From the NCBI GenBank assembly GCA_900317845.1, contig ONII01000002.1, positions 1-64,000 on the forward strand: a stretch of 64,000 nt of DNA, read 5' to 3'. Numbering within the stretch: the first letter of the stretch is position 1; each line of letters begins with the position of its first letter. Made by a program: the position numbers and the translations under genes. Under the pieces are notes generated by a model. The model was not told the DNA's origin and made no database searches. It saw nothing but the letters and a program-made list of their open reading frames with translations. Positions 27,773 through 62,863 of the stretch are shown here, piece by piece. The DNA is from an uncultured Bacteroidales bacterium (GTDB lineage Bacteria > Bacteroidota > Bacteroidia > Bacteroidales > UBA932).

Positions 27773-28426
27773 ATGGGACACGGTAAGTACATCGATCCGT
27801 TCAAGGCAGGAGATTCTCTCGGCCTTCGGCCTCGGAATGACAATGTCACACCGAGCGAAGCGAGCGTGTCCCATCATCGGGTGAAAGCCGGTGAGGTCTT
27901 GAACCTGGAGTACGTGGTACTGCCCGGGGAGAGCAAGGATATCGACATCACGATCGACCTTGTGGGCCCCGGAGCGGAAGCCCATATCAAGGCGCTGTAC
28001 CTTTGCAAGGCCGACGAAAAGGTGAATTTCCACATCCTGATGCACCACCGTGCGCCCGGCTGCCGCAGCATCCAGCTCATTAACGGCATTGCCGGCGGGC
28101 AGGCGCAGGTGAGTTTCCGCGGTACCATCGTTGTGGCGCCGGACGCCCAGCAAACGGAGGCCTACCAGGAAAACCACAATATTGTACTCACGGATACCGC
28201 CAAGGTGGACACCCGCCCGCAGCTGGAAATTTATGCCGATGACGTCAAGTGTTCCCACGGCGCAACCGTAGGGCAATTGAACGCCGACGAACTCTTTTAC
28301 ATGCGCTCCCGCGGCGTCCCGGAGGCGGAAGCCCGGACGCTGCAGATGCTCTCTTTCCTGTCTCCGGTAGTCCCGGCCGGAAGGGAGGAAGAAATTGAGC
28401 GGGTGCTCAGAAGCTATGCGGAGTAA
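27773..28426 (+). CDS. sufD: short SufD (SufBD core) with repeat-derived N-terminus
   Basis: The 217-residue protein covers only the SufBD beta-helix core and C-terminus (GEVLNLEYVVLPGESKDIDI ... YADDVKCSHGATVGQLNADE LFYMRSRG). Typical SufD proteins have over 400 residues, so the N-terminal helical domain is missing. Residues about 13-33 (SLGLRPRNDNVTPSEASVS) are encoded by a palindromic repeat (27811-27870) of a type otherwise found between genes. The conserved KCSHGATVG segment, with the His involved in scaffold function, is intact. It overlaps the next gene by 11 nt. No sufS or sufU follows, so the desulfurase genes are elsewhere. Confidence 0.88.
   Translation: MGHGKYIDPFKAGDSLGLRPRNDNVTPSEASVSHHRVKAGEVLNLEYVVLPGESKDIDITIDLVGPGAEAHIKALYLCKADEKVNFHILMHHRAPGCRSIQLINGIAGGQAQVSFRGTIVVAPDAQQTEAYQENHNIVLTDTAKVDTRPQLEIYADDVKCSHGATVGQLNADELFYMRSRGVPEAEARTLQMLSFLSPVVPAGREEEIERVLRSYAE
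27811..27870. repeat. REP-like palindrome within sufD coding sequence
   Basis: The centre is TGACA-a-TGTCA (27838-27848), with outer arms CTCGG (27831-27835) and CCGAG (27851-27855) and further partly matching GC-rich arms (GGCCTTCGGC against GCGAAGCGAGC). The format AGATTCT...AATGACA/TGTCA...GAGCGAAGCGA matches the intergenic element before mdh (56045-56080). Confidence 0.7.
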
Positions 28427-30035
28427 GTGGCCGCTCATACTGCTTGCTGCCGGCGTGGCGTTTTCCTGCGTCCGGATGGGGCCGGACCGGCAGACGGAAT
28501 CCCTGTTGCAGGGGCTGGATAGCTATCTGGAAACCAGGGATTTGTATGTTTCCCAAAAGCAGAACCAACTTGCGGCCCTTTCCAAACTGGCGCGGGATAT
28601 TTCCGACCCTTCCCTCCGCTATAACCTGGAATTCACTATTGCCCAGGAGTATTTTGCCTTTAACTTTGATTCCACGCAGGCTTACCTCAAACATTGCCAG
28701 CAACTGGCCGGGACCAACAAGGAGCGCTATGAGGAAGCGTCCATCGCCCTGGGGCACCTGTATGAGAAGGCGGGCAGCTATATGGAGGCATACACGCTAT
28801 TATATGGTCAGTTGGACAGTGCGCGTCTTTCCAAGGCCCTCCTGCCGGAGTACCTTTGGGTCTTGTACGATTTTAGCCATGACCTGGCGGGGAATTCCGG
28901 TATGGTGGAACGCCTGTCCATTCCTTCTGCCGCCTCGTACCGCAAGCAGCTGATGCCACTTTTGCCCGAGAACAGCGAGCGCTGGCGGGTGCTCCTGCGG
29001 GATCAACTCATCGACGAGCAAAACTGGCCCGCAGCAGACAGCGTGGCCCATATCCTGCTTTCCGGTACGCGCCCGGACGAGCACAATTATGCCATCCACG
29101 CCTTTTTCTGCTCGGAGATTGCCGGGTTCAGCGGCCGCCCCGCCGACCGCATGAAGTGGCTGGTGGAAAGCGCCAAGAGCGATATTCTCTGTGCCGTGAA
29201 GGACTACGCCTCCCTGACGATGGTGGCGCAGAGTCTCCTTCCGGTCGATGTGAACCGTTCCTTCCGCTATTTGCGTATCGCGCAGGAAGACGCCCTGTTT
29301 TATAACGCCAAGCTTCGTCCCTGGCAAATTTCCCGTTTCCTGATAGACGTGGAGGATGCCTATTCCCAGCGGCAGGCGGAAAGTCGCAAACTTACGATTA
29401 TTGCGCTGGGCATCATGGCTGTTCTGGCAGTTGCCATGTCCCTTCTCTTCCGTTTTGCCATTGGCCGTTCCCGGAAGCTGGCCCGTACGCGGCAGGAGCT
29501 GGAGCAGGCCAACATTCAGCTGGCCAGCGCCAACGTGAGCCTCAACGACTTAAACCGCCAAATCTCCCGGGCCGACAAAGTGAAGGAGCGCCAGATTGTC
29601 ACCTTCCTGGAAGGGCTCGCCGGCCAGATTTCCCTCATCCGGGCCGAGGATAACCGCTACCGCAACCTGCTCAAGCAGGGGAAGGCGGATGCCCTGCTCA
29701 AGGAACTCTCTATTACCGGTCGCGCGGAGAAGGCCCGCGAAGAGTTCTACGAGAGCTTCGACCGCACTTTCCTGGCCATGTATCCGGACTTTGTGGAGCA
29801 GTTCAATGCGCTGCTTAAAGAAGAGGCCCGCGTAACGCCGCCGGAGGGCCGCCTCACCACGGAACTCCGGGTATTCGCCCTCATCCGGCTGGGCGTGGAC
29901 GACAGCAAGAAGATAGCCTCTATGCTGGACTACTCCGCCAGTACCATTTACAATTACAAGGTTAGCGTGAAAAATGCCTCGCTGGGTCCCCGTGAAACCT
30001 TTGAAGAAAGGGTAAAAATGATTGGAAAACAGTAA
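28416..30035 (+). CDS. DUF6377-type membrane regulator of the glycan utilisation locus
   Basis: The 539-residue protein starts MRSKWPLILLAAGVAFSC (signal or lipobox-like). A TPR-like helical region spans about 25-320, one transmembrane segment about 326-347, a coiled coil about 350-395, and a C-terminal helix-turn-helix resides at about 484-522 (ELRVFALIRLGVDDSKKIAS, then STIYNYKVSVKN). This is the layout of DUF6377 regulators, which often sit beside susC/susD pairs and are thought to sense a periplasmic signal and bind DNA in the cytoplasm. It overlaps sufD by 11 nt, so the start could be re-assigned, but the signal segment supports 28416. It lies 200 nt upstream of susC in the same direction. 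Confidence 0.82.
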   Translation: MRSKWPLILLAAGVAFSCVRMGPDRQTESLLQGLDSYLETRDLYVSQKQNQLAALSKLARDISDPSLRYNLEFTIAQEYFAFNFDSTQAYLKHCQQLAGTNKERYEEASIALGHLYEKAGSYMEAYTLLYGQLDSARLSKALLPEYLWVLYDFSHDLAGNSGMVERLSIPSAASYRKQLMPLLPENSERWRVLLRDQLIDEQNWPAADSVAHILLSGTRPDEHNYAIHAFFCSEIAGFSGRPADRMKWLVESAKSDILCAVKDYASLTMVAQSLLPVDVNRSFRYLRIAQEDALFYNAKLRPWQISRFLIDVEDAYSQRQAESRKLTIIALGIMAVLAVAMSLLFRFAIGRSRKLARTRQELEQANIQLASANVSLNDLNRQISRADKVKERQIVTFLEGLAGQISLIRAEDNRYRNLLKQGKADALLKELSITGRAEKAREEFYESFDRTFLAMYPDFVEQFNALLKEEARVTPPEGRLTTELRVFALIRLGVDDSKKIASMLDYSASTIYNYKVSVKNASLGPRETFEERVKMIGKQ

Positions 30036-30238: not shown

Positions 30239-33200
30239 ATGAAAAAAATCGCAACTCTGATCCTCTTTGCAGGATTGGCTTTGTCGGCAATGGCGCAGAA
30301 CCTTACTTTAAAAGGTACTGTGAAAGATTCCGCCGGCGAACCCATTATCGGAGCGTTTGTAGTCCAGCAGGGAACCAGCAATGGCGCCATGACGGACGTG
30401 GACGGTGCATTCGCGCTCACCACTCCGCAAGGTGCTTCCATTGAAATTTCCTGCATCGGATATGCAACGCAGGTGATTTCCAACAACGGCCAGCAGGACC
30501 TCTCGATCGTCCTTGTAGACGACGCCCAGATGCTGGAAGAGACCGTGGTCATCGGCTACGGTGTACAGAAAAAATCGGTCGTTACCGCGGCTATCGCCAA
30601 GGTGGACGCCGAGGCGCTGGGTGTAACGGCTCCCACGCGTGTGGATAACGCCCTCAAGGGCCTTACCGCCGGTGTTACCGTTACTTCCGCTTCCGGTCAG
30701 CCGGGCGCCAGCTCCCGCATCCGCATCCGTGGTGTGGGTTCCATCAACTCCTCCGACCCTATTTACATTGTGGACGGCATGCCCATCTCCGGCGGTATCG
30801 ACTACCTGAATCCCAGCGATATCGAATCCATCGAGGTGCTCAAGGACGCCGCCTCCGGTGCTGTTTACGGTACCCGCGCCGCCAACGGCGTTGTGCTGGT
30901 AACCACCAAGAAGGGCGCCAAGGGCCGTACCCATGTGGACTATAACTTCACCTTCGGTATTTCCAACCCTTGGAAGCAGCGTGAAGTGCTCAACGCTTCC
31001 GAGTATGCCCTCATGATCAATGAAGGACTCATCAACGCGGGTATGGCTCCCAAGTACGCCGATCCGTTCAGCTATGGCGTGGGCACCAACTGGCAAAAAG
31101 AAGTATTCAACCGCAACGCTCCCCAGCAGACCCACGAGGTTTCCGTGAGCGGCGCCTCCGACCGGGTGAACTACTACCTGGCCCTGGGTTATACCGACCA
31201 GCAGGGTATTGTGGGCGGCAACTGGGGCCGTTCCAATTACAACCGTCTCACCCTCCGTTCCAACACCAGCTTTACTCTGGTGGACAAGAAGAGCGAGCGT
31301 AACTACCTGAACAGCATTGTCCTGCAGAACCAGCTGTCTTACGCAAAGATTAGCTCCAAGGGCATTTCCGAGAACTCGCAGTGGGGTTCCCCGCTGGGTT
31401 CCGCCCTTGCCATGTCTCCTATCCTGGGCGTATATGCCAGCGATGAAGATGTGGCCAACTACCGCACCATCTATCCCGGTGAAACCCTGCTGCAGGCAGC
31501 CGACGGCCGTTACTACATGATCCCCGGCGGCGCGTACAATGAGATGAACAACCCTATCGCAGACCTTTCCCGTCCGGCGAATGACAACTGGAGCCACAAG
31601 TTTGTGGGCGGCCTGTCCGGCGACATCCAGATTTGGGACAACATCCATTTCCACACCTCTTTCTCCGTGGATATGAGCTTCTGGGGCAACTATGGTTACA
31701 CCCCCACTTACTACCTGTCCGGTAACAACCATGCCACCACCACTGAGGTCAATGCCCAGTACGAGAAAGGCCTGGTATGGCAGGTGGAAAACTACCTCAC
31801 CTATAATAAGGAAATCGGCAAGCACGCCTTCTCCGTGATGATTGGCCAGAGTGCCTTCGAGAACACCAGCGACGGCCTTTGGGGCAATCGCCGCGACCTG
31901 GCTCCGGAGTGGTACGACAAGCCGTATATCGGCAATGCCCCCGACAACAACGACGACCCTGACAAGCAGCACGCCAACGGCTGGTTCAACAGCCCGTACC
32001 GCCTGGCCTCTTACTTTGGCCGTGCCGACTACAACTACGGCGAGCGCTACATGGTCCAGTTCACCATCCGTCAGGACGGTTCCTCCAAGTTCGGTTCCAA
32101 CAACAAGTGGGGTTATTTCCCGTCCTTCTCCCTGGGCTGGAACATCCACAATGAACCGTACATCAACGTTCCCAGCTGGTTGTCCCGTGCCAAGGTCCGT
32201 TTCTCCTGGGGTGTGAATGGTTCCGATGCCTTCGAGGCCTTCCGTTACACCACCCTCACCTCCAATAACAACAACTACATCTTCGACCGCAACGAGGCCA
32301 CCGTCATCGGTGTGAAGTCCTCCGGCCTGGCCAACCCGTCCCTCCGCTGGGAGCGTTCCGTCCAGACCAATGTGGGTGTCGACCTGGGCTTCCTGTCCAA
32401 CGCCATCAACTTCACCATCGACTACTACAACAAGACCACGGACGGCATGCTCATCCAGGTTCCGGTGCCCGCCTATGTAGGTGAGGCCAGCCCTTGGGGC
32501 AACGCCGGTCTCATGCGCAACCAGGGTGTGGAAATGGAGGCTTCCTACAAGTTCTCCCCGGTCAAGGACCTGAACTTCCATATCGGCGGTAACGCCACTT
32601 ACCTGCACAACCGCCTGGTGAACCTGGGTAACGACAGTGGCTTCATGAACCTGGATTCCTTCCAGGGCGCCGGCACCATGACCCGTGCCGAGAATGGCAA
32701 GCCGTTCCCGTACTTCTACGGTTACAAGACCAACGGTATCTTCCAGAACCAGGCCGAGATTGACTCCTATGTCAATGCCGACGGCGAAAAGATTCTCCCC
32801 AATGCCGTTCCCGGTGATGTACGCTTTGTGGATGTGAACGGTGACGGCAAGTTCACCGAGGACGACCGCACCGATATTGGCAACGGTATGCCCAAGTGGA
32901 CCGTGGGCCTGAACTTCAGCGCTTCTTACAAGGGCCTGGACTTCTACATGCTGTGGCAGGGAACCTTCGGAAACAGCGTGCTGGATGTTACCCGCCGTAT
33001 CGACATTTCCGAGAGCAACCTTCCCGCCTATATGCTCAACCGCTGGACCGGTGAAGGTACCTCCAACACCATTCCCCGTTTCGTGCGCGGCGACGCCGTC
33101 AACTGGCAGATGTCCGACCTGTATGTACAGGATGGCAGCTACATGCGCCTGAAGAACATCCAGCTGGGTTACACCCTGCCGCAGAAGTGGACCAAGAAAA

Positions 33201-33370
33201 TCTTCATTTCCTCCCTCCGCTTCTTCGTGGGCGCCGAGAACCTGCTCACCCTCACTTCTTACCGCGGTTTCGACCCCGAAATCTCCTCCGGTGGTACTTC
33301 CCTGGGTGTAGACTACGGTGTGTACCCGCAGTCCCGCACCTTCCTTTGCGGTGTTAACCTTAAATTCTAA
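30239..33370 (+). CDS. susC: SusC/RagA-type TonB-linked outer-membrane receptor
   Basis: The 1043-residue TonB-dependent transporter has a signal peptide (MKKIATLILFAGLALSAMAQ) and a carboxypeptidase-like regulatory domain (about 22-105: LKGTVKDSAGEPIIGAFVVQ). A plug domain follows (VIGYGVQKKSVVTAAIAKVD, RIRGVGSINSSDPIYIVDGM, DIESIEVLKDAASGAVYGTR, AANGVVLVTTKKG). The rest is a 22-strand barrel ending TFLCGVNLKF. It imports oligosaccharides released at the surface, with the adjacent SusD as lid. The length is typical. Position with SusD, a binding lipoprotein, GH16 and GH3 points to a beta-1,3-glucan ligand. Confidence 0.97.
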   Translation: MKKIATLILFAGLALSAMAQNLTLKGTVKDSAGEPIIGAFVVQQGTSNGAMTDVDGAFALTTPQGASIEISCIGYATQVISNNGQQDLSIVLVDDAQMLEETVVIGYGVQKKSVVTAAIAKVDAEALGVTAPTRVDNALKGLTAGVTVTSASGQPGASSRIRIRGVGSINSSDPIYIVDGMPISGGIDYLNPSDIESIEVLKDAASGAVYGTRAANGVVLVTTKKGAKGRTHVDYNFTFGISNPWKQREVLNASEYALMINEGLINAGMAPKYADPFSYGVGTNWQKEVFNRNAPQQTHEVSVSGASDRVNYYLALGYTDQQGIVGGNWGRSNYNRLTLRSNTSFTLVDKKSERNYLNSIVLQNQLSYAKISSKGISENSQWGSPLGSALAMSPILGVYASDEDVANYRTIYPGETLLQAADGRYYMIPGGAYNEMNNPIADLSRPANDNWSHKFVGGLSGDIQIWDNIHFHTSFSVDMSFWGNYGYTPTYYLSGNNHATTTEVNAQYEKGLVWQVENYLTYNKEIGKHAFSVMIGQSAFENTSDGLWGNRRDLAPEWYDKPYIGNAPDNNDDPDKQHANGWFNSPYRLASYFGRADYNYGERYMVQFTIRQDGSSKFGSNNKWGYFPSFSLGWNIHNEPYINVPSWLSRAKVRFSWGVNGSDAFEAFRYTTLTSNNNNYIFDRNEATVIGVKSSGLANPSLRWERSVQTNVGVDLGFLSNAINFTIDYYNKTTDGMLIQVPVPAYVGEASPWGNAGLMRNQGVEMEASYKFSPVKDLNFHIGGNATYLHNRLVNLGNDSGFMNLDSFQGAGTMTRAENGKPFPYFYGYKTNGIFQNQAEIDSYVNADGEKILPNAVPGDVRFVDVNGDGKFTEDDRTDIGNGMPKWTVGLNFSASYKGLDFYMLWQGTFGNSVLDVTRRIDISESNLPAYMLNRWTGEGTSNTIPRFVRGDAVNWQMSDLYVQDGSYMRLKNIQLGYTLPQKWTKKIFISSLRFFVGAENLLTLTSYRGFDPEISSGGTSLGVDYGVYPQSRTFLCGVNLKF

Positions 33371-33379
33371 AAAACAGGC

Positions 33380-34903
33380 ATGACTATGAAACAGAATCTT
33401 ATTCTTGCTGCGGCAGCCCTGGTTGCCCTCACCACTGCCTGCACCGAAAAATTCCTGACCGTGGAACACAACAGCGCCCGTCCGCTGGAGACCTACTTCA
33501 CTACTCCGGAGCACCTGGAGGAAGCCGTTGTGGCCGCATACGACCCGCTCCAGTGGTTTGACTGGTGCGAAGGGCAGTACAATCCGCTCAACATTATGTC
33601 CGACATCATGGCCGACCAGATTTGGGTGGGCGGTTCCGACCGTTCCGACAACGACTACTGGCACATGATGATGAACTTCGAGGCCACCCCCACCAAGACC
33701 ATGTCGGGTATCTGGTCCGATGCTTACTCCGGCGTCAAGCGTTGCAACGACGTCCTCACCTATATCGGCTGGACCAAAGACCTCTCCGACGACGCCAAAA
33801 AGCTTGCCGAGGCCCAGGTTCGCGTACTCCGCGCTTTCTACTACAACATCCTCTGGAAATTCTGGGGCAACATCCCCTACTATGAGGTGAACCTCACCGG
33901 TGACTTCACCTGCGAGCAGTTCAAGGCCGACGAAGTCTACGAAAAGTTCATCACCGACCTTGAGGGTGCCATTGCCCTGAATGCCCTCCCGATGCACTGG
34001 GACGATGCCAATATCGGCCGCGTTAACAAAGCGATGGCCTACATGCTCTTCACCGAGGCCGTCATGTACCAGAACGACGAGTCCCGCTATGGCAAGGCCC
34101 TTGGCTATATGAAAGAAATCATTGCCGATCCCAACTACGAGCTGCTGCCGGACTATGGCCAGATTTTCCTGGAGACCGGCGAATGGAGCAGCGAATCCAT
34201 CTTCGAAATCAGCTACAAGGACAGCGGCGCCCAGCGCTCCTGGAACTGGGTTCGTGGCGTAGGTGGTACGGTTCTTCCCCGTATGATCTCCCCGAACGAA
34301 TGGTCCGGTGACGGCGAGCACGACAACGGCTGGGGCTTCGCTCCGGTACGTGTCGAAACCTACGAGATGTTCGACCCTGCCGACGCCCGTCGCGCCGCTA
34401 CCTGCTGGGATGCCCGCAACACCGGCTCCGGCAAGTACAATCCGCGCTACCAGGATACCGGCTACTTCCTGGAGAAGTACGTGGCCTACAAAGCCAACAA
34501 TGCGGAAGCCGAATACGACGGCGACCTCAACTTCAACAACAACCTCCGCATCTACCGTTACTCCGAGTGCCTGCTGAATGCAGCGGAACTCGCTCTGCGC
34601 AGCAACGACACCGCCGGTGCCGAAGGCTGGCTCAACGCCGTGCACGGCCGTTCCCTGGGTGGCGCCACCGTGGCCCTCTCGCTGGAGAACATCAAGCAGG
34701 AACGCCGGCTCGAGTTTGTAGGTGAAGGCAAGCGTTACTGGGACCTCATCCGCTGGGGTGACGCTCCTACGGTGCTGGTTCCGGACGTATACGGTTATCG
34801 TACCAATACCTGGAGCGAGAGCAAGAAATACCTGCCCTTCCCGCAGCACGAGATGGACGCTACCGCAGGTCTTACGCACCAGCTGGTTCAGAACAATTAT
34901 TAA
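33380..34903 (+). CDS. susD: SusD/RagB-type glycan-binding lipoprotein
   Basis: The 507-residue surface lipoprotein (lipobox ALVALTTAC) pairs with SusC to capture glycan. Typical features are the early KFLTVEHNSARPLETYFTTP, TPR-like helices (AEAQVRVLRAFYYNILWKFW; GNIPYYEV), YSECLLNAAELALRSNDTAG and the C-terminal IKQERRLEFVGEGKRYWDLI followed by RWGDA. ATG at 33380 or the second Met at 33386 could start it, and the latter gives the cleaner signal peptide. Aromatic residues in WFDWCEGQ and WNWVRGVGG may contribute to the sugar platform. Confidence 0.96.
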   Translation: MTMKQNLILAAAALVALTTACTEKFLTVEHNSARPLETYFTTPEHLEEAVVAAYDPLQWFDWCEGQYNPLNIMSDIMADQIWVGGSDRSDNDYWHMMMNFEATPTKTMSGIWSDAYSGVKRCNDVLTYIGWTKDLSDDAKKLAEAQVRVLRAFYYNILWKFWGNIPYYEVNLTGDFTCEQFKADEVYEKFITDLEGAIALNALPMHWDDANIGRVNKAMAYMLFTEAVMYQNDESRYGKALGYMKEIIADPNYELLPDYGQIFLETGEWSSESIFEISYKDSGAQRSWNWVRGVGGTVLPRMISPNEWSGDGEHDNGWGFAPVRVETYEMFDPADARRAATCWDARNTGSGKYNPRYQDTGYFLEKYVAYKANNAEAEYDGDLNFNNNLRIYRYSECLLNAAELALRSNDTAGAEGWLNAVHGRSLGGATVALSLENIKQERRLEFVGEGKRYWDLIRWGDAPTVLVPDVYGYRTNTWSESKKYLPFPQHEMDATAGLTHQLVQNNY

Positions 34904-34915: not shown

Positions 34916-37765
34916 ATGAAAAAGTTAGCATATATCCTTGCGGCTACGTTCGCGCTGTTTGCCTGCGCCAAGGAGGAGAATCGTCACCCTTCAGAGGCCC
35001 AGGCCCCCAAGACCGCATCCGCATTCGAGCCCATTATTTCGGTGGACCAGGAGATTAACCAGGTTACCTTCTCCGTGGACTCCAAAGCGGTCATCCCTGT
35101 CTGGCTGTTCCAGGACAAGGACGGCGAATTCACTGAGCGCAGGGCCCAGAACGGCCTCAAGCGCATCTTCGCCACGGCTGGTGATTACAAGGTGCGCATG
35201 AAGATCATGAACGCCTCCGGTATCACCCCCGACTACGTGGAAAAGACCTTCCACATTGACAACACCATCGCCAGCTTTGACAAGTTCATCACTTTCCTGG
35301 CCGGTGGCACCGCAGTTGAGAACACCAAGCTCTGGCACATCGACGGCGATACCGAAGGTCACATGGGCTGCGGCCCCGCCGGAACCGACGGTCTCGAGTG
35401 GTGGTCGGCAGGCGCCAAGGATAAGGAAGCCTTCGGCGTGTATGAGAGTATGGTGGGCTTCTCCGGTGACGGCGCCTATGCTTTCCTCCCCGGTGAGAAT
35501 GGCGGCGTCTATGTGAACAAGGATGTCACGGTGTCTCCGTTCGTGGAGCAGAAGGGTGACGCTACCGAGGACTATGTGGCCCAGGTGGATCCCCAGATGT
35601 CCTCGTACGCCTTTGCCTACCACGGCGACGAACTCTACCTGGTGCTCCCGGAAAAGACCCTGTTCCCGTACATCGACAACGATGCCTTCTGGGCCAATCC
35701 TGAATTCAAGGTGCTCAGCATCACCCGCGAGACGCTGGAACTGGTGCACGACAACGGCGACATCGCCTGGCACTTCCTCCTTACCTCCAAGCCGGCTGCC
35801 TACGTATTCAAAGGCTTCAAGTACAATGCCGATTCCAACCTTTGGAAACCGGCCGACGGTGCCCACACCTTCAGTTTCTATTACGCTCCCGGCTGGGCCC
35901 AGATTGCCGATCCGGAAGTGGAGCTGGAAGGTGCCGAATACACCATTGACCTGCCGTCCGCTACCGCTGACCAGTGGCAGGCCCAGTTCCACATCATCCC
36001 CGAAGAGCCCGTCGTGCTCACCGAGGACAAGAACTACGACTTCTCTGTCATCATCAATACCAACAAGGCCCTTCCGGGCATGACCTTCAAGCTCACCTCC
36101 GTGGATTCCGACGATGTGTTCCTCTTCGCCAACCGCGAGCCCATCGAAGCCGGCGAGACCATTTACTACCTCACCGACCTGAAAGGCATCAACGCTCCCA
36201 ATGGCGTGAAGATGGTCTTTGACTTTGGCGGCAACGCTGAGGGGACCGTGGTTTCCATCGCCAACATTGTGGTGAAAGACCATGCCATTGACGACGGTAC
36301 CATCCTGCCTTCCGACGGACCGGAGGATCCCGAAGACGGCGACAACATTGTGGTTATCTACGGCAAGGAACTCTGGGCCGATGCTACCGTTGAACTGGAG
36401 ACCTGGTTCAGCCCGGCCGACTGGAGCGGCGGCCTGGATCCGCAGGCCACCTATGCGGAGGGCAAACTCACGCTGACGGTTCCCGAAGGAACGGGCGGCG
36501 CCGAGTGGCAGGGTCAGGTAAAACTGCACACCAACATCGCCATCGACCCGGCCAAGAAGTATGCCTTCAACGCTAAGTTCAATGCCAGCTCCGACGGTTT
36601 TGCGACCGCCAAGATGACTTCCAACACCGACCCGGGCGGCATCGAGTTCTTCTATGACAACAGCCTGGAACTGACCGCTTTCGAGGACTATGGTTACAAG
36701 CAGGAAGGCGTGAGCATGGCTGTAGAAGGGGAGACCGTCATGGTGGTCTTCGACTTTGGCCGCCTGCCTGCCGGAACGGAAGTGACGGTAAGCGACATCA
36801 CCCTCCACGAGGTCCAGGTGGGCGAGGTTACCTACGGTGACAACATCTGGGACAACAATGCCGAACTGGAGACCTGGTTCAGCCCGGCCGACTGGAGCGG
36901 CGGTCTGGATCCGCAGGCCACCTATACGGATGGCAAACTCACGCTGACGGTTCCCGAAGGAACGGGCGGTGCCGAGTGGCAGGGTCAGGTGAAACTGCAC
37001 ACCAACATTGCCATCGACCCCAATAAACTGTACGGTTTCTCCGCAAAAGTGAACGCCGGTGCCGACGGCCTGATCACGGCCAAGATGACCTCCAACACCG
37101 ATCCCGGTGGCATTGAGTTCTTCTACGACAATGGCATTGCCCTCACCGCTTTCGAAGATGTCCTCATCAAGAAAGACAAGATACAGATGGCCACAACCGA
37201 AGGCGAAACCATCATGGTGGTGTTCGACTTTGGCCGCCTGCCCGCCGGAACGGAAGTGACCGTAACGGAGATTACCGTCCGGGAACTCAATGTGGTGTCC
37301 TACAACGAGACCAACATCTGGGACAACAATGCAGAGCTGGAGACCTGGTTCAGCCCGGCCGACTGGAGCGGCGGCCTGGATCCGCAGGCAACCTATACGG
37401 ATGGCAAACTCACGCTGACGGTTCCCGAAGGAACGGGCGGTGCCGAGTGGCAGGGTCAGGTGAAACTGCACACCAGCGTCCCCATCGAGTCCGGCGCGCT
37501 GTATGCGGTGAGCTTCACCATCAACGCCTCTTCCGACGGCGTGGCTACGGCCAAGATGACCTCCAACACGGACCCCGGCGGCATTGAGTTCTTCTATGAC
37601 AACGGTGTCGAACTGACGGCTTTCGAAAACCTGACCTATCTGCAAAAAGGTGTTTCCATGGCCATCGGTGAAGGTGAAACAGTGATGCTCGTCCTGGACT
37701 TCGGCCGCTTCCCGGCCGGGACCGAGATTACCGTGTCCGATATCGTCCTTCTGAAAGCGGAATAA
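34916..37765 (+). CDS. surface glycan-binding lipoprotein with tandem carbohydrate-binding-like repeats
   Basis: The 949-residue lipoprotein (ATFALFACA) occupies the SusE/F (SGBP-B) position. Domains: a PKD-like sandwich (about 40-115), a SusE/F-like region (about 125-340, with KLWHIDGDTEGHMGCGPAGT), one divergent carbohydrate-binding-like domain (about 345-455), then three near-identical copies of a 157-residue CBM4/9-like module (484-640, 641-797, 798-949). Each copy contains ELETWFSPADWSGGLDPQAT, EGTGGAEWQGQVKLHT and MTSNTDPGGIEFFYDN, with aromatic residues suited to glycan stacking. Tandem modules should raise avidity for long glucans at the surface. The copies are highly alike at the nucleotide level, so copy number may vary among strains. 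Confidence 0.88.
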   Translation: MKKLAYILAATFALFACAKEENRHPSEAQAPKTASAFEPIISVDQEINQVTFSVDSKAVIPVWLFQDKDGEFTERRAQNGLKRIFATAGDYKVRMKIMNASGITPDYVEKTFHIDNTIASFDKFITFLAGGTAVENTKLWHIDGDTEGHMGCGPAGTDGLEWWSAGAKDKEAFGVYESMVGFSGDGAYAFLPGENGGVYVNKDVTVSPFVEQKGDATEDYVAQVDPQMSSYAFAYHGDELYLVLPEKTLFPYIDNDAFWANPEFKVLSITRETLELVHDNGDIAWHFLLTSKPAAYVFKGFKYNADSNLWKPADGAHTFSFYYAPGWAQIADPEVELEGAEYTIDLPSATADQWQAQFHIIPEEPVVLTEDKNYDFSVIINTNKALPGMTFKLTSVDSDDVFLFANREPIEAGETIYYLTDLKGINAPNGVKMVFDFGGNAEGTVVSIANIVVKDHAIDDGTILPSDGPEDPEDGDNIVVIYGKELWADATVELETWFSPADWSGGLDPQATYAEGKLTLTVPEGTGGAEWQGQVKLHTNIAIDPAKKYAFNAKFNASSDGFATAKMTSNTDPGGIEFFYDNSLELTAFEDYGYKQEGVSMAVEGETVMVVFDFGRLPAGTEVTVSDITLHEVQVGEVTYGDNIWDNNAELETWFSPADWSGGLDPQATYTDGKLTLTVPEGTGGAEWQGQVKLHTNIAIDPNKLYGFSAKVNAGADGLITAKMTSNTDPGGIEFFYDNGIALTAFEDVLIKKDKIQMATTEGETIMVVFDFGRLPAGTEVTVTEITVRELNVVSYNETNIWDNNAELETWFSPADWSGGLDPQATYTDGKLTLTVPEGTGGAEWQGQVKLHTSVPIESGALYAVSFTINASSDGVATAKMTSNTDPGGIEFFYDNGVELTAFENLTYLQKGVSMAIGEGETVMLVLDFGRFPAGTEITVSDIVLLKAE
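36365..37765 (+). repeat. three tandem 471-nt repeat units in the glycan-binding gene
   Basis: Units start at about 36365, 36836 and 37307. The landmark encoding ELETWFSPADWSGG recurs at 36392, 36863 and 37334, exactly 471 nt (157 codons) apart. About 140 nt after each landmark are almost identical, and the rest of each unit is more diverged. This is consistent with recent duplication or gene conversion. Confidence 0.92.
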
Positions 37766-37766
37766 C

Positions 37767-38855
37767 ATGAGATCCATCCATCTATTGCCCCTTCTTTTCC
37801 TTACCCTCGCCTGCGCCTGCGGCGGGGGTGGGGACAAAGAGGTCCCTTCCAAGACGGAAAGTGTTACCGTAACGCCTACCAGCCTGTCCTGCGACCAGAA
37901 CGAGCAAACGCTCACGCTGGACGTGACCGCTTCCGGCGCCTTCCAGGTGTTTCCTGCCGATGGCGTGTCCTGGGTAACGGTGGAGCCGGCCTACAGCGCA
38001 GCCTCATCGGCCAAAGTAAGCGTGAAGGTGGCCAAGAATGACACCTATCTCGACCGCGAGACCACCATCACGGTCAAGTGCGGAACCACGCGCGAGAAAG
38101 TGACGCTCTCCCAGAGCGGCGGTGAGGTGGATATCGACATGCCCGAAGGCTATCACCTGGTGTGGCGTGACGAATTCAGTGAAGGCAGCGTACCGTCCAG
38201 CCAGTGGTGGTACGAGACCGGCGCCGGCGGCTGGGGCAACAACGAGATTCAGGAGTACGTGGCCCAGAACAAGGACGGAAAAGACATTGCCTATGTGAGT
38301 AACGGGACGCTGAAAATTGCGGCCCAGAAGATTGACAACAAGGTCTATTCTGTCCGTATGAACACCACCCAGGGCTGGACCTACGGTTGGTTCGAGGCCC
38401 GTATCAAGGTCACCGACGCCCGCGGCAGCTGGCCGGCCTTCTGGATGATGCCCAAGAACTTCAAAACTTGGCCCGGTGACGGCGAAATTGACATCATGGA
38501 GTATGCCATTGGCACCCAGGGGAAGAATAAGTCTTCTTCCAGCATCCACTGTGCTGCATTCAACTGGCCTGCAGGTACCCAGAAAACCCATGTCCAGAGT
38601 GTGAACAATGCCGCTTCGGAGTTCCATGTATATGCCCTGGAGTGGATGGCGGACAAGATGATTTTCTACGTGGACGGGAAAGCCCACCTCACCTTTGACA
38701 ACGACGGTCAGGGGTATGAACACTGGCCGTTCAACGCCCCGTTCTATCTCAAGCTGAACCTGGCTTGGGGCGGAAACATGGGCGGTACGGCCGTGGATGC
38801 CGACCTTCCCGCCGTGTACGAGATTGACTACGTCCGCGTATTCCAGAAAGACTGA
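37767..38855 (+). CDS. GH16 endo-beta-1,3-glucanase (laminarinase-like) lipoprotein
   Basis: The 362-residue lipoprotein (FLTLACACGGGG) has a BACON-type beta domain (about 32-117, TPTSLSCDQNEQTLTLDVTA, ending VTLSQSGG) and a GH16 jelly roll (about 126-362). The catalytic signature GDGEIDIMEYAIG places the nucleophile at Glu240 and the acid/base at Glu245; HLVWRDEFSEG and WGNNEIQEYV are typical of laminarinase-type GH16 (subfamily 3). It should cut internal beta-1,3 (or mixed 1,3/1,4) glucan bonds at the surface, feeding the SusCD pair. The BACON domain probably keeps it near the membrane. It begins 1 nt after the upstream stop. Confidence 0.92.
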   Translation: MRSIHLLPLLFLTLACACGGGGDKEVPSKTESVTVTPTSLSCDQNEQTLTLDVTASGAFQVFPADGVSWVTVEPAYSAASSAKVSVKVAKNDTYLDRETTITVKCGTTREKVTLSQSGGEVDIDMPEGYHLVWRDEFSEGSVPSSQWWYETGAGGWGNNEIQEYVAQNKDGKDIAYVSNGTLKIAAQKIDNKVYSVRMNTTQGWTYGWFEARIKVTDARGSWPAFWMMPKNFKTWPGDGEIDIMEYAIGTQGKNKSSSSIHCAAFNWPAGTQKTHVQSVNNAASEFHVYALEWMADKMIFYVDGKAHLTFDNDGQGYEHWPFNAPFYLKLNLAWGGNMGGTAVDADLPAVYEIDYVRVFQKD

Positions 38856-38860: not shown

Positions 38861-41092
38861 ATGAAACGAACTAAAATCCTTTTCCTGAGTCTGATGGCAG
38901 TGCTTGCCTGCTCCCGGCAGGCGGGCACTACCACGGGCTCTACTCCCGAGGTGGAGGCTCGCGTAGATAAACTGCTGAGCCAGATGACCTTGCAGGAGAA
39001 AATCGGCCAGATGAACCAGATTTCGGCCGGTGGCGACGTGGCCCAGTATGCGGAGGCCCTTCGTGCCGGACAGATTGGTTCCATCCTCAACGAGGTGGAT
39101 CCGGAAAAGATTAACGAATACCAGCGGCTGGCCGTGGAGGAATCCCGCCTGGGCATTCCGCTGCTGGTGAGCCGGGACGTGATTCATGGTTTCCACACCC
39201 TGTTCCCCATTCCGCTGGGTTTGGCAGCCACCTTTGACCCGGAACTGGTGGAGAAAGGCGCCCGCATTGCGGCCATCGAGGCCACGGCGCAGGGCATCCG
39301 CTGGACCTTCTCGCCCATGCTGGACATTGCCCGCGACCCCCGTTGGGGCCGGATAGCGGAAGGCAGCGGCGAAGACACCTACCTGGACGCCCGCATGGGC
39401 GAAGCCATGGTGCGCGGCTACCAGGGCAACCTGGCGGACTCCACGTCCATGGCGGCCTGCATCAAGCACTTTGTGGGTTACGGTGCAGCCGAAGGCGGCC
39501 GTGACTACAACAGCACCTACCTTACCGAGCGCCAGCTCCGGAACGTGTACCTGCCGCCGTTCGAGGCCGCGGTAAAAGCCGGTGCGCTCACCCTCATGAC
39601 CTCCTTCAACGACAACGACGGCGTGCCGTCCACCGGCAACACGTTTGTGGTGAAGGACATCCTCCGCGGCGAGTGGGGCTTCGACGGCCTGGTGGTCACC
39701 GACTGGAACTCCATGGGCGAGATGATCGCCCACGGTTTTGGCGAGGACCGCAAAGACGTGGCCGAGAAAGCCGTCAAAGCCGGCGTAGACATGGACATGA
39801 TGACTTATGGTTTCCTGTCCCACCTGGAGGAACTGGTGAAGGAAGGCGCCGTGAAGGAGAAGGCCATCGACCAGGCTGTCCGGAACATCCTCCGCGTAAA
39901 AGTGATGCTGGGCCTGTTCGAGCATCCGTACGTGGATGTGGCGGCGGGACGCGCCGTGCAATATGCGCCGGAGCACCTGGCTGCCGCGCAGAAGACGGCC
40001 GAAGAAAGCGCCATCCTCCTCAAAAATACAGGCGTGCTGCCCTTGAAGGCCGGCGTCCGCATGCTGGTGACCGGTCCCCTGGCCGATGCCCCGCACGACC
40101 AGCTGGGCACCTGGTCCTTCGACGGCGAAAAGGAACATACGGTTACCCCGCTGAAGGCCCTGCAGGCACGGTTCCCGGGTCAGGTGACCTATGTCCCCGG
40201 CCTGCAGTTCAGCCGGGAGAAGCGTGAACGCTTTGACGATGTCCTTGCCGCCGCCCGCCACGCCGATGTTGTGCTGGCCTTCGTGGGTGAAGAAGCCATC
40301 CTCTCCGGCGAAGCCCATTCCCTGGCCGACCTGAACCTCAAGGGCTCCCAAAGCGAATTGCTGAAGGCGCTGCGAAGCACCGGCAAGCCGGTGGTGGCCG
40401 TGGTGATGGCCGGCCGTCCGCTTACCATCGAGCGCGACCTTCCCCACTGCGACGCCCTGCTGTACAGTTTCCATCCCGGAACCATGGGCGGCCCTGCGCT
40501 GGCCAATCTCCTGTTTGGCGACGTGGTGCCGTCGGGAAAAACCCCCGTTACGTTCCTGCGTACGGCGGGCCAGGCCCCCATGTACTACAACCACAACATG
40601 ACCGGCCGGCCGTTCATCGGCGGTTTGCTGCTGGACGACATTCCGCTGGAAGCCGGACAAACCTCCCTGGGCAACACGTCCTATTACCTGGACTATGGCG
40701 CCTATCCGCTCTTCCCCTTCGGCTATGGCCTTAGCTACACCACCTTTGCCTATTCCGACATCCGTCTGGACAAAGGTGTGTATGGCAAGGACGATGTGAT
40801 GGGGATCAGCTTTACGCTCACTAATACCGGCAACTGCGAGGGCACAGAAATTGCTCAGGTGTATGTCCGTGACCTGGTGGGTTCCGTAACCCGCCCGGTG
40901 AAAGAGCTGAAGGCGTTTGAGCGCATTACACTTGCCCCCGGCGAAAGCCGCACCGTGACCCTTTCCCTTCCCGTGTCGGAACTGGCCTTCTATGGCCTGG
41001 ACATGGTGAAGAAAGTAGAGCCCGGTGACTTCCAGTTGTGGGTAGCCGGCGACAGCGCCTCCGGTGAGGCCTTATCCTTTAAAGTGAAGTAA
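38861..41092 (+). CDS. bglX: GH3 beta-glucosidase
   Basis: The 743-residue GH3 enzyme has a lipoprotein-like signal (SLMAVLACSRQ). N-terminal TIM barrel motifs are QMTLQEKIGQMNQI, SRDVIHGFHTLFPIPLGLAA, DIARDPRWGR, CIKHFVGYGAAEGGRDYNST and GLVVTDWNSMGEM with nucleophile Asp281. The second alpha/beta domain has EEAILSGEAHSLADLNL, and a C-terminal fibronectin-like domain has GYGLSYTTFAYS. It trims released oligoglucosides to glucose, probably in the periplasm. It lies in the same operon as GH16, 5 nt downstream. Confidence 0.95.
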   Translation: MKRTKILFLSLMAVLACSRQAGTTTGSTPEVEARVDKLLSQMTLQEKIGQMNQISAGGDVAQYAEALRAGQIGSILNEVDPEKINEYQRLAVEESRLGIPLLVSRDVIHGFHTLFPIPLGLAATFDPELVEKGARIAAIEATAQGIRWTFSPMLDIARDPRWGRIAEGSGEDTYLDARMGEAMVRGYQGNLADSTSMAACIKHFVGYGAAEGGRDYNSTYLTERQLRNVYLPPFEAAVKAGALTLMTSFNDNDGVPSTGNTFVVKDILRGEWGFDGLVVTDWNSMGEMIAHGFGEDRKDVAEKAVKAGVDMDMMTYGFLSHLEELVKEGAVKEKAIDQAVRNILRVKVMLGLFEHPYVDVAAGRAVQYAPEHLAAAQKTAEESAILLKNTGVLPLKAGVRMLVTGPLADAPHDQLGTWSFDGEKEHTVTPLKALQARFPGQVTYVPGLQFSREKRERFDDVLAAARHADVVLAFVGEEAILSGEAHSLADLNLKGSQSELLKALRSTGKPVVAVVMAGRPLTIERDLPHCDALLYSFHPGTMGGPALANLLFGDVVPSGKTPVTFLRTAGQAPMYYNHNMTGRPFIGGLLLDDIPLEAGQTSLGNTSYYLDYGAYPLFPFGYGLSYTTFAYSDIRLDKGVYGKDDVMGISFTLTNTGNCEGTEIAQVYVRDLVGSVTRPVKELKAFERITLAPGESRTVTLSLPVSELAFYGLDMVKKVEPGDFQLWVAGDSASGEALSFKVK

Positions 41093-41096: not shown

Positions 41097-42731
41097 ATGC
41101 AGCGGACTTTCCGTTTTCTGGTATTGTTTACCTGTTTCCTTGGACTTGCCGCCTGCTCCAAGCAGGAGATTGTACCGGAGTCCAAACCGGCCGAAGTCCG
41201 CCTGCGTTCCATTACCGTATCCCAAAGCAGTCTGGTCCTTCCGGCCGGAGGCAGTGCAGAACTGTCCTTCAGCGTGAAGGACCCTGCTTTTGAGATTCCA
41301 TCCCTGCTTGTGGAAAACGGTAACGGAAAGGCGCCGGCCGCCTTCTCGCTGGAAAGCTTCCGCCGCGGAGGAAAGGAAGGAGAGTATGTGGCGGTCCTAA
41401 AGGACAACAAGGTGGAAGAGGTGTACAGCACCCAGGTTTGCCTGGTGGTTCCGCTCAAGAATACCCAGACCGGCCAAATCTCCTATGTGTCGTCCCTCTT
41501 TTTTGTGGTCCGCTCCGAGCAGCAGCATGTCCGCGTGTCGGTGAACACGGGGCTGCCGGTGGTGTATGTAGACACGGAAGGCGGGAAAGGCGTGTACTCC
41601 AAAACCGAGTATGTTCCGGCCAGCCTGTATATCAATGGGGCCGGGAAGTATGAAACCCTGCAGCCCGTCAGCTGCTCCATCCGGGGCAGGGGCAACACCA
41701 CCTGGACCTGGCCCAAAAAGCCCTACCTGATTAAACTGGAGGAGAAAGCCTCCGTTCTGGGCATGAACAAGCATAAACGCTGGGTGCTGCTGGCCAATTT
41801 CATGGACCGTTCGCTCATGCGTAATCTGGTGTCCATGAAGGTGGCCTCCCTGACCTCCCTGGACTGGACGCCCGGCTGCGTCCCGGTGGAGGTGGTGCTC
41901 AACGGAAAGCACCAGGGCAGTTATCTGCTCATCGAGCAGGTGCGGGTGGACAAGCACCGGGTGAACATTACGGAAATGAAGCCGGAAGACAACGCCGGCG
42001 ATGCACTCACGGGCGGTTATCTGCTGGAGCTGGACTTCCATTACGATAACGAGTTCCAGTGGACAGACCCGCGGGGCCATTGCGACGGGATGTCGCGCGG
42101 CATTCCCTTTGCGGTGAAATCGCCTGACCCTGAGGAAATTACCCTTTCGCAGAAAAACTACATCAAAAACTATATCGCAGAAGTGGCGTCCACCATCTAT
42201 GGGGAAAACTTTGCAGATCCGGAGAACGGCTATGCCAAGTACCTGGACGTGGACTCCTTTGTGGACTACTGGATTGTTTATGAGGTCATGTGCAACCACG
42301 AGCTCCGGAATCCGGGCAGCGTCTTTTTCCACAAAGACCGTGGAGGGAAACTCACGGCCGGCCCCTGCTGGGACTTTGACTGGGGCATCCTGTCCTTCTA
42401 CACATCGGCCGGCGAAACCCGGCTGGTGAACGGCAAGGCCATCTGGTACGAGCGCCTGTTCCAGGATCCGGTGTTTGCAGAAAAGGTGAAAACCCGTTTC
42501 TACGAGCTTCTGCCGCAGCTGGAAACCATTCCGGACTATATGGACGAGTGCGAAGCGCTGCTCACGGAGAGCGCCAAGCTGAATTTCAAGCTGTGGAATC
42601 CGGCCGACGACCGCTCGCAGAATGGCGGCAATATCATCAACGGCGACGAAAATTTAACCTTCCACGAAGCCGTAGAGCGCTTGAAATACAATTACAAAAA
42701 GCACCTGCAGGTAATCCAGGCGCAGCTTTAG
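41097..42731 (+). CDS. CotH-family lipoprotein
   Basis: The 544-residue lipoprotein (FTCFLGLAACS) has a beta-domain N-terminus (about 30-140) and a CotH domain (about 150-544): SCSIRGRGNTTWTWPKKPYL, MNKHKRWVLLANFMDRSLMR, LNGKHQGSYLLIEQVRV, DGMSRGIPFAVKSPDPEEIT, and PGSVFFHKDRGG with GPCWDFDWG supplying metal-binding Asp residues. CotH enzymes are atypical kinases of spore coat or secreted proteins. In Bacteroidetes they are frequent in surface glycan loci with unknown substrates. It is last in the operon and overlaps the convergent tsaE by 4 nt (TTAG). Confidence 0.87.
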   Translation: MQRTFRFLVLFTCFLGLAACSKQEIVPESKPAEVRLRSITVSQSSLVLPAGGSAELSFSVKDPAFEIPSLLVENGNGKAPAAFSLESFRRGGKEGEYVAVLKDNKVEEVYSTQVCLVVPLKNTQTGQISYVSSLFFVVRSEQQHVRVSVNTGLPVVYVDTEGGKGVYSKTEYVPASLYINGAGKYETLQPVSCSIRGRGNTTWTWPKKPYLIKLEEKASVLGMNKHKRWVLLANFMDRSLMRNLVSMKVASLTSLDWTPGCVPVEVVLNGKHQGSYLLIEQVRVDKHRVNITEMKPEDNAGDALTGGYLLELDFHYDNEFQWTDPRGHCDGMSRGIPFAVKSPDPEEITLSQKNYIKNYIAEVASTIYGENFADPENGYAKYLDVDSFVDYWIVYEVMCNHELRNPGSVFFHKDRGGKLTAGPCWDFDWGILSFYTSAGETRLVNGKAIWYERLFQDPVFAEKVKTRFYELLPQLETIPDYMDECEALLTESAKLNFKLWNPADDRSQNGGNIINGDENLTFHEAVERLKYNYKKHLQVIQAQL

Positions 42732-61527: not shown

Positions 61528-62253
61528 ATGAAAAAAATTTATGCACTTGTTCTTGCCGCAGCCCTTCTGCTGCTGGGAACGCAGGCCAAGGCGCAGTTCC
61601 ATATTGGCGTAGGCTACCTTAACTCTACGGAAATCACCCACTACAACAACGGTGACAAGCCCTTCAGCGAGATGATGCATGGTTTCTACCTGGGTGGCAC
61701 GTTCAATATCAAGGTGGCCGGCGATTTCGGTATCGCCCCCGGTTTCTATATCGATGCCCTGTTCCAGGAGGAACTCTATCGTGAGCAGCCCAAGTACTAT
61801 CAGAGCCGCTTTGGCGGGTTTAACTTCGAGAGCGGTATTTATCGTGAACTGGCCCTGAACATTCCGGTGAATCTCACCTATGACTTTGAGATCAACGACA
61901 ACGTCCGCATCTTTGTCTATGGTGGCGTGAATCTTCAGTTTACTCCGCTGGCCCGCACCACGTATCGGGAAGGCACGGCCGCTCCGGGTGGCGTTGTCAT
62001 TACCCCCAGAGGTCCGCGCACCATCTTCGTCGTCAACGGAAACACCTACAAGTACGATCACCTGTGGGGTGAAGAACCGGATATGCGTCCGTTCAACGTG
62101 TACGCCGGCGGCGGCGTCGGTGTCATGCTGGGAGACATCCGCATCATGGCCGGATACGACCACAGCCTGCTCAACATTTCCCGCATCGACGGAGAGCGCA
62201 CCGGCCGTTCCCAGTTCAAGATTGGTGTCAACTTTGTCTTTGGCAACGACTAA
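61528..62253 (+). CDS. outer-membrane beta-barrel protein (second of a tandem pair)
   Basis: The 241-residue exported barrel has a signal peptide (MKKIYALVLAAALLLLGTQA). Its final part (NVYAGGGVGVMLGDIRIMAG, YDHSLLNISRIDG, FKIGVNFVF) parallels the 5494 protein (LGGGVGVEIIRHIRATVG, YDHGLINRDGTPG). It contains a longer loop (about 150-175) rich in Pro/Gly. Tandem duplication followed by divergence is likely. The stop overlaps queH by 4 nt. Confidence 0.8.
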   Translation: MKKIYALVLAAALLLLGTQAKAQFHIGVGYLNSTEITHYNNGDKPFSEMMHGFYLGGTFNIKVAGDFGIAPGFYIDALFQEELYREQPKYYQSRFGGFNFESGIYRELALNIPVNLTYDFEINDNVRIFVYGGVNLQFTPLARTTYREGTAAPGGVVITPRGPRTIFVVNGNTYKYDHLWGEEPDMRPFNVYAGGGVGVMLGDIRIMAGYDHSLLNISRIDGERTGRSQFKIGVNFVFGND

Positions 62254-62822
62254 TGCCTGGAGAACTCGCAACCGCAGAATAGCTGGTTGTAGAAGTTTTC
62301 TTCTTTAATAATTTGATTCCGGCGTTCCTGGAGCCCGCCCTTACGCCAGTTTTGGGCCCACCAGGTAACGCCGGAAACTTGTTCACAGGCCCATCGGCCG
62401 GCTTCGTCCACCTGCTGGAGGTCTTTCCAGCGGGAACTGGCCAGGGTGGTGGTGAGTACCGTGAATCCGTTCTGGGCAGCATATTGTGCCGCCCGTAGCA
62501 AACGCTGCTTGAAGCATTCCAGGCAGCGTTTTCCGCGTTCCGGCTCCGCCTCCAGGCCTGTGGCGCACTGCCGCCAGGCGCTGTGGTCGTAGACATCGTC
62601 CACAATCTCGATGCCCCATTTTTTTGCGTAGCGGAGGCACTCGTTGAGCCGATGGTCGTATTCCTCGCGGGGGAAGATATTGGAATTGGCGTAAAAGATA
62701 ACCGGCCTGATGCCCCGCTCAATGAGGCATTCTACAATGGCACTGGAGCACGGCGCGCAGCACGCATGCAGCAGCACCTTCTGCGCCCCTCCCGGCACCT
62801 CTATTTGCACCTGAGTCTTCAT
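62250..62822 (-). CDS. queH: epoxyqueuosine reductase QueH
   Basis: The 190-residue enzyme performs the last step of queuosine tRNA modification and replaces cobalamin-dependent QueG in many anaerobes. Signature segments are LLHACCAPCSSAIVECL, IFYANSNIFPREEYDHRLNE, KRCLECFKQRLLRAAQYA, TTLASSRWKDLQQVDEAG and GGLQERRNQIIKEENFYNQL with terminal FCGCEFS, giving the Cys ligands of its Fe-S site. The ATG at 62822 is preferred: sequence upstream in frame is derived from the repeat array and the -7 element lies just before it. Confidence 0.95.
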   Translation of the reverse strand: MKTQVQIEVPGGAQKVLLHACCAPCSSAIVECLIERGIRPVIFYANSNIFPREEYDHRLNECLRYAKKWGIEIVDDVYDHSAWRQCATGLEAEPERGKRCLECFKQRLLRAAQYAAQNGFTVLTTTLASSRWKDLQQVDEAGRWACEQVSGVTWWAQNWRKGGLQERRNQIIKEENFYNQLFCGCEFSRH

Positions 62823-62829
62823 TCCTCCG

Positions 62830-62837: not shown

Positions 62838-62863
62838 CACCTTTTCCCCGGTTCTTCCTCCTT

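What the first reader, a model, noticed from the sequence alone, without database searches (positions are those of the whole stretch)
36365..37765. Glycan-binding lipoprotein enlarged by three near-identical 471-nt modules
Seen: exact 471-nt spacing and about 140 nt of near identity per unit. Known: extra carbohydrate-binding domains on SusE/F-position proteins raise affinity for long glucans. Inference: ongoing expansion under selection for capture of a polymer such as laminarin, likely to differ between strains.
Basis: partly seen in the sequence, partly recalled or inferred. Interest (0 to 1): 0.48.

Follow-up and report, generated by a model that had tools for sequence, protein, structure and literature searches.

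The report
Sugar-binding tandem modules converted in part
A Bacteroidales-type surface protein, probably for catching beta-glucan, carries four sugar-binding-type modules; in the last three only one third of each module, the part with the conserved tryptophans, is copied between neighbours, and the same happens in some separate arrays of relatives, which would keep putative binding sites matched while the rest drifts apart.

Summary
The repeat is real. The gene (34916-37765, 949 aa) encodes a probable lipoprotein with a PKD-like domain, a second domain like part of 7kv5, and four CBM4-fold modules; the last three lie 471 nt apart. It sits in a beta-1,3-glucan-type PUL (SusC, SusD, SGBP-B, GH16, GH3, CotH). 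Its closest solved relative is BtSGBP-B. Only a 47-codon block per module is near-identical (96-98% nt); whole modules are 71-76% identical in protein. Ongoing expansion is not supported here: two related species have the same four modules, and outside the block each module is closest to its positional orthologue. The block groups by genome instead (window m1-m3 clade 100/98; positional clades rejected by AU test), i.e. partial gene conversion. The same block behaves so in separate arrays: 17 of 87 testable module pairs (7 of them from the window's own group), against 0-3 of 75-89 for equal-sized stretches that do not overlap it. The block holds the two invariant tryptophans, though other invariant residues lie outside. 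Module number varies from 0 to 5 among the relatives fetched. Ligand, strain-level variation and selection are untested. Most likely: a multivalent glucan catcher whose ligand-side parts evolve in concert.

The parts
34916..37765 (+). SGBP-B gene, 949 aa, SusE-position glycan-binding-type lipoprotein
   Evidence: ORF; BtSGBP-B 7kwb E 4.2e-77; gene order in relatives
34916..34966 (+). Signal peptide with lipobox-like LFAC; Cys17 would carry the lipid (read by eye, lipobox rule recalled, no predictor run)
   Evidence: translation; C17 invariant in the 6 sequences of A2
35006..35272 (+). PKD-like N-terminal domain (about aa 31-119)
   Evidence: PKD_4 below cut-off; aa 9-119 align to 7kwb 16-123
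35276..35800 (+). Second domain (aa 121-295); 1, 2 or 4 copies in relatives
   Evidence: aa 82-242 match 7kv5, E 1.2e-7; counts
35834..36286 (+). Module m0, CBM4-like, different type from m1-m3
   Evidence: matches 7kwb
36287..36364 (+). Acidic, proline-containing linker between m0 and the tandem modules
   Evidence: sequence
36365..36817 (+). Module m1, CBM4-like
36839..37291 (+). Module m2, CBM4-like; AlphaFold model pLDDT 90.9, TM 0.83 to BtSGBP-B
37310..37762 (+). Module m3, CBM4-like
36392..36532 (+). Homogenised block of m1 (47 codons)
36863..37003 (+). Homogenised block of m2 (47 codons)
37334..37474 (+). Homogenised block of m3 (47 codons)
28395..30035 (+). DUF6377 protein, possible regulator of the PUL (inference; HTH match only below cut-off)
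   Evidence: PF19904 E 4.2e-65; a relative lies beside the PUL in many loci
30239..33370 (+). SusC-like TonB-dependent transporter
33380..34903 (+). SusD-like SGBP-A; tryptophans 62, 288 and 318 align with W62, W288 and W319 of 7kv2
   Evidence: 7kv2 E 9.6e-192, alignment; residues checked; their role from PMC11351036 passages
37767..38855 (+). GH16 with N-terminal BACON domain
38861..41092 (+). GH3, BglX-type beta-glucosidase model above cut-off
41097..42731 (+). CotH-domain protein next to the PUL
   Evidence: PF08757 E 8.4e-38

Best explanation
It is the SGBP-B of a beta-1,3-glucan-type utilization locus. The protein would hold a long glucan at the cell surface by several CBM4-like modules at once, near GH16 and the SusD/SusC importer (inferred from characterised relatives). 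The three C-terminal modules are a triplication that predates the split from two related species (shown). Within each, a 47-codon block near the start, which holds the invariant W19, W47 and Q50, has been copied between modules by intragenic gene conversion, while the rest keeps its positional identity and diverges (shown by sequence). Selection probably keeps these conversions because they match the ligand sites of all copies, and does not keep them elsewhere because neighbouring modules need different backs or contacts (inferred).
For: Fold: m2 model pLDDT 90.9; best PDB hits 7kwc/7kwb, TM 0.82-0.83, then CBM4 chains; profile A1 hits both C-terminal domains of 7kwb, E 1.9e-85. Locus: SusC, SusD, SGBP-B, GH16 consecutive in 37 of 54 loci examined, several others being cut by contig or stretch ends; SusD triad. 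Conversion, window with L102 and L103: block paralogues 89-98% nt, orthologues 84-93%; rest paralogues 63-75%, orthologues 74-89%. Paralogue minus orthologue distance -0.056 in the block (bootstrap 95% -0.088 to -0.027), +0.116 in the rest (0.079 to 0.157). Opposed trees: window clade 100/98 in the block, positional m2 99/97 and m3 100/99 in the rest, with AU rejections. Silent sites of the block differ between four genomes as in the rest (0.35-0.55 against 0.37-0.52). Recurrence: 17 of 87 testable module pairs, against 0-3 of 75-89 for non-overlapping stretches of equal size; bootstrap support in L112/L115, L124/L125 and L047/L051. W19 and W47 in 174 of 174, Q50 in 175 of 175 modules with a residue there, of 177 distinct ones.
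Against: 70 of 87 testable pairs do not show it; L104/L105 and L041/L042 do not by bootstrap. L113/L114 m2-m3 are homogenised over the whole module. In L102 the block of m1 goes with the window, so L102's copies are rejected as a clade (AU p 8e-4), and L103's clade is weak (42/70). L112's own pair is inside the 0.02 margin; only L115 passes. L129, counted among the 17, also appears in stretches outside the block. No ligand contact was seen: the block as binding face rests on its tryptophans and on CBM4 likeness, and K82, D130 and G132, outside it, are just as invariant. Binding by m1-m3 is untested; Pfam CBM_4_9 stays below cut-off.
Confidence: 0.6

Rival explanations
1. Neutral homology-island conversion: gene conversion is real but limited to the block only because the block stays similar enough in DNA to recombine; selection for matched ligand sites plays no part.
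For: In the window trio the block of m1-m3 is the better conserved part between species (91-94% aa against 78-82%), and somewhat so in L031/L032/L037 m1-m3 (75-77% against 65-73%) and the L128 group (80-84% against 76-78%). Recombination needs long similar stretches (recalled).
Against: In other arrays with conversion the block is not better conserved between species: L047/L051 69-75% against 80-81%, L112/L115 m0-m1 92% against 95-97%, L124/L125 90-92% against 91-92%; in the trio's m0 it is the faster part, 76% against 89%.
Confidence: 0.28
2. Recent or ongoing expansion by tandem duplication.
For: Module number varies 0-5 among the relatives fetched; L112 has five where L115 has four.
Against: Same four modules in window, L102 and L103 with positional orthologues outside the block; silent differences outside the block in 40-53% of comparable codons between the window's own modules.
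Confidence: 0.05
3. Assembly artefact: short-read metagenome assembly merged the three blocks.
For: The relative G005 breaks here: one contig ends at window position 36399, another begins at 37453, both inside a block. All seven titled relatives are MAGs.
Against: The window's blocks keep 3-4 silent differences per pair; the longest exact shared run is 85 nt; the pattern occurs in other assemblies, among them contigs of 227 kb (L115), 360 kb (L037) and 518 kb (L051).
Confidence: 0.05
4. No conversion: the block is alike only because protein and silent sites are constrained.
For: The block is well conserved in protein among the trio's m1-m3.
Against: Silent sites in the block differ in 0.35-0.55 of comparable codons between four genomes, as in the rest; trees of block and rest contradict each other.
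Confidence: 0.02

Closest known systems
BtSGBP-B of the Bacteroides thetaiotaomicron 1,3GUL (7kwb, 7kwc; PMC7157763: outline, section 8 and passages seen)
   Same: SusE-type position, PKD-like N-terminal match, two C-terminal domains of the same family and fold. The paper reports that it binds two laminarins and yeast beta-glucan.
   Different: The window protein has four such modules of two types and a further domain between the PKD-like part and the modules; three modules share a converted block.
7kv5 'PKD domain protein' (an SGBP-B of a related locus, as recalled)
   Same: aa 82-242 of the window protein match it, E 1.2e-7.
   Different: No match to the CBM4-like modules was reported.
Cow-rumen 41O1_PUL (PMC11351036: start of abstract and passages seen)
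   Same: SusC, SusD with the tryptophan triad, a lipoprotein called likely SGBP-B, GH16, GH3.
   Different: That lipoprotein is not analysed in the passages seen.
CBM family 4 structures (1gu3, 1ulo, 1gui)
   Same: Fold, E 1.6e-7 to 6e-6.
   Different: 17-22% identity; Pfam CBM_4_9 below cut-off.
Periscope proteins (PMC8201768: start of abstract in a listing)
   Same: Bacterial surface proteins with tandem domains whose number varies.
   Different: There length sets how far a separate ligand-binding domain projects; here the repeats are themselves the putative binding domains, and only part of each is homogenised.

Membership tests
1,3GUL-type SGBP-B | Encoded just after SusC and SusD, with GH16 and GH3 in the locus | tested here: met
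1,3GUL-type SGBP-B | Sequence relation to a characterised SGBP-B | tested here: met
   7kwb E 4.2e-77, three stretches
1,3GUL-type SGBP-B | Outer-membrane lipoprotein | tested here: inconclusive
   LFAC at 14-17, C17 invariant in 6 of 6 aligned sequences; no predictor run
1,3GUL-type SGBP-B | Binds beta-1,3-glucan | not testable with these tools
   none
CBM4 (Pfam CBM_4_9) | Score above the family cut-off | tested here: not met
   m2: 17.5 bits against 25.9; 2 of 25 modules match at E up to 0.1
CBM4 (Pfam CBM_4_9) | CBM4-type beta-sandwich | tested here: met
   TM 0.56-0.66 to the CBM4 chains listed
Starch SusE/SusF | SusE/SusF domain models | tested here: not met
   no such hit at E up to 1 in Pfam or NCBIfam
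Periscope proteins | Domain number differs between strains of one species | not testable with these tools
   one genome per species held

The most novel reading that the evidence does not exclude
Tandem sugar-binding modules in Bacteroidales surface proteins undergo recurrent gene conversion confined to their ligand-side third: a change of ligand site in one module is spread to its neighbours, so a multivalent binder changes specificity as a unit between species while the backs of the modules stay individual.
Probability: 0.45. Interest if true: 0.65.

Novelty: new variant of a known kind. Interest (0 to 1): 0.47.

Why it matters
In gut Bacteroides, SGBP specificity together with enzyme content predicts which beta-glucans a species can use, and SGBPs are particularly dissimilar between species (PMC7157763, section 8). 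A way by which several binding modules change together would explain how a multivalent binder can shift specificity without mismatched copies. It would also give a sequence-only pointer to the ligand-binding part of such modules.

Tried and rejected
Recent duplication was tested with positional orthologues and rejected for this array. Silent-site constraint was tested between genomes and rejected. Forward scan (block homogenised, rest positional): 23 of 287 comparisons, 16 module pairs; reverse scan: 0 of 224 above the 0.02 margin, one below it (L052/L136). Equal-sized pseudo-blocks served as control. The full-length AlphaFold model (pLDDT 67.6, pTM 0.34) was too weak for domain arrangement and was not searched. 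W19 and W47 could not be placed on the model surface: no coordinates were among the files. A protein tree of 48 modules grouped the window's m1-m3 by genome; it mixes block and rest and was replaced by the split trees (9 modules of 3 genomes, L104 m1 and m2 as outgroup).

Rows dropped or limited: L107 and L058, the same genomes as L031 and L033; L105 m0, cut off; L036 m2, cut off, from A1 (25 of 26 modules). The codons before the block were left out of block/rest comparisons except and in the remainder, which count them. keep only module pairs whose remainder is positionally orthologous; comparisons share genomes and are not independent. L041 holds N in its last module; the script stopped there, after its other rows. 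One search read minus-strand loci on the wrong strand and was replaced. The genomes were picked from the hit list, not at random.

Literature: no paper in the held library has 'gene conversion', 'polysaccharide utilization' and 'carbohydrate-binding' together. The listings (12 of 156 papers shown; 2 of 2; 12 of 21) showed no such case in title or start of abstract. The JBC 2021 paper on these SGBP structures is not held.

Full report
OBSERVATION. The reported repeat is there: copies at 36392, 36863 and 37334, spacing 471 and 471. Per unit 47 codons (141 nt) are 96-98% identical in DNA, with 3-4 silent differences per 42-44 comparable codons; the rest of the module after them is 63-70% identical, with silent differences in 40-53% of comparable codons. 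The repeats are the C-terminal part of a 949-aa gene at 34916-37765. One more module of the same family, m0, lies upstream and is 24% identical to the others.

WHAT IT IS. The gene lies between SusC/SusD and GH16, GH3 and CotH genes. The protein matches BtSGBP-B (7kwb) in its N-terminal part and in its modules, E 4.2e-77, and 7kv5 over aa 82-242. No Pfam model reaches its cut-off. A profile of 25 modules (A1) matches both C-terminal domains of 7kwb, E 1.9e-85. The m2 model (pLDDT 90.9) is all-beta and closest to 7kwc and 7kwb (TM 0.82-0.83, 31-32% identity), then to CBM4 chains, among them 1gu3 and 1gui.

SUBSTRATE. The SusD neighbour matches 7kv2 with E 9.6e-192. The alignment shows tryptophans at positions 62, 288 and 319 of 7kv2, the numbers that PMC11351036 gives for the triad of BtSGBP-A that it compares with its own laminarin-binding SusD (passages); all three align with Trp in the window protein. 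GH16 is closest in sequence to 8va4, then to entries named beta-1,3(4)-glucanase, GH16 family protein, ULam111 and laminarinase. So a beta-1,3-glucan, perhaps branched or mixed-linkage, is the likely ligand; this is inference. Of seven titled relatives one names yak rumen; the RUG and RUI isolate names suggest ruminant gut (recalled). There, yeast or cereal glucans are as likely as laminarin.

RELATIVES. With the full protein as query 39 of 150 genomes matched at E 1e-5, with module m2 102 of 400 genomes of the genus; the window's own genome is among the rows of both. Loci were fetched for a part of these only. SusC, SusD, SGBP-B and GH16 are consecutive in 37 of 54 loci examined; 27 of the 37 also hold a GH3 and 29 a CotH relative; many of the other 17 are cut by contig or stretch ends. 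Among 59 uncut ORFs with the second domain, the window's included, CBM4-like modules number 0 (5 ORFs), 1 (5), 2 (21), 3 (4), 4 (22) or 5 (2); four ORFs have four copies of the second domain and no CBM4-like module. Three further uncut module ORFs lack the second domain (L050, L052, L060). Between close species L112 has five modules and L115 four; L042 and L116 agree at 97-99% aa in m0, m1 and m3 but their middle modules only at 49%. So number and kind of modules do change in this group.

AGE OF THE TRIPLE. L102 (G185) and L103 (G374) carry the same four modules; outside the block each of m1-m3 is closest to the module at the same position (74-81% aa) and less like its own neighbours (55-68% aa). 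The triplication therefore predates these species. Ongoing expansion is not supported for this array.

CONVERSION OF THE BLOCK. In the block the relation is reversed: the window's own copies are 96-98% identical in DNA, its orthologues 84-91%. Paralogue minus orthologue distance over the three genomes is -0.056 in the block (95% -0.088 to -0.027) and +0.116 in the rest (0.079 to 0.157). Trees agree for the window: in the block its three copies form a clade (100/98) and the three positional clades are rejected (AU p at most 1.1e-4); in the rest m2 and m3 form positional clades (99/97 and 100/99), m1 is not resolved but not rejected (p 0.32), and the genome clades are rejected (p at most 6e-4). 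Less clean: L103's copies form a clade in the block with weak support (42/70), and L102's are rejected as a clade (p 8e-4), since its m1 block goes with the window. Silent sites in the block are free to change between four genomes (0.35-0.55, against 0.37-0.52 in the rest). Gene conversion, or an equivalent double exchange, is the plain reading.

RECURRENCE. The block was defined in the window and then tested elsewhere. Paralogue minus orthologue distance, block then rest: L112/L115 (m0-m1) -0.045 (-0.087 to -0.003), +0.133 (0.085 to 0.185); L124/L125 -0.094 (-0.156 to -0.042), +0.063 (0.017 to 0.115); L047/L051 -0.080 (-0.153 to -0.007), +0.081 (0.033 to 0.132). L104/L105 (+0.018, -0.014 to 0.060) and L041/L042 (+0.003, -0.028 to 0.038) do not show it. 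Over the fetched arrays 17 of 87 testable module pairs show a homogenised block, 7 from the window, L102 and L103 and 10 from L035, L037, L042, L045, L047, L051, L115, L124, L125 and L129; equal-sized stretches that do not overlap the block give 0 to 3 of 75-89, and some of these background pairs (L129) are also among the 17. L113/L114 m2-m3 are homogenised over their whole length.

WHY THIS BLOCK. It holds the two invariant tryptophans: W19 and W47 in 174 of 174 and Q50 in 175 of 175 modules with a residue there, of 177 distinct modules. In carbohydrate-binding modules such tryptophans often stack on sugar (recalled). But K82, D130 and G132 outside the block are equally invariant, and position 65 is always aromatic, so conservation alone does not single out the block. 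Two causes of the pattern remain. Selection may favour matched ligand sites; or conversion may simply persist where copies stay alike. The second is weakened because in L047/L051 and L112/L115 m0-m1 the block is less conserved between species than the rest, and in the window trio's m0, which has no close copy, it is the faster part (76% against 89% aa); it is helped by the trio's m1-m3, where the block is the better conserved part (91-94% against 78-82%). It is not excluded.

VERDICT. An SGBP-B with an enlarged array of BtSGBP-B-type modules: a new variant of a known kind. The new point is block-limited concerted evolution, shown here by sequence and not seen in the paper searches made. Binding, surface location, strain variation and selection are untested.

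Noticed in passing
L042 against L116 (SGBP-B genes): Two close species agree at 97-99% aa in three modules, but their middle modules agree at 49% only: a whole module seems to have been exchanged inside the array.
   Followed up: partly
L063, L064, L065, L068 (SGBP-B genes): In four relatives the second domain is present four times and no CBM4-like module is found: the same gene position amplifies a different domain.
   Followed up: partly
window 41097-42731: A CotH-domain gene follows the beta-glucan genes; a relative is present in 29 of the 37 loci with consecutive SusC, SusD, SGBP-B and GH16. Its role there is unclear.
   Followed up: no
window 30308-34879 and 34991-37915, - strand: Very long open frames (1523 and 974 codons) antisense to SusC/SusD and SGBP-B, probably a by-product of G+C-rich codon use.
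   Followed up: no
window 62864-62975: Tandem repeat of about 52 nt, 2.2 copies, 91% matches, inside a minus-strand ORF at 62250-63305.
   Followed up: no
L033 end and L059 start (G005): The assembly of a close relative (92% aa in the covered part of SGBP-B) breaks inside the first and the last block, as a collapsed repeat would.
   Followed up: partly
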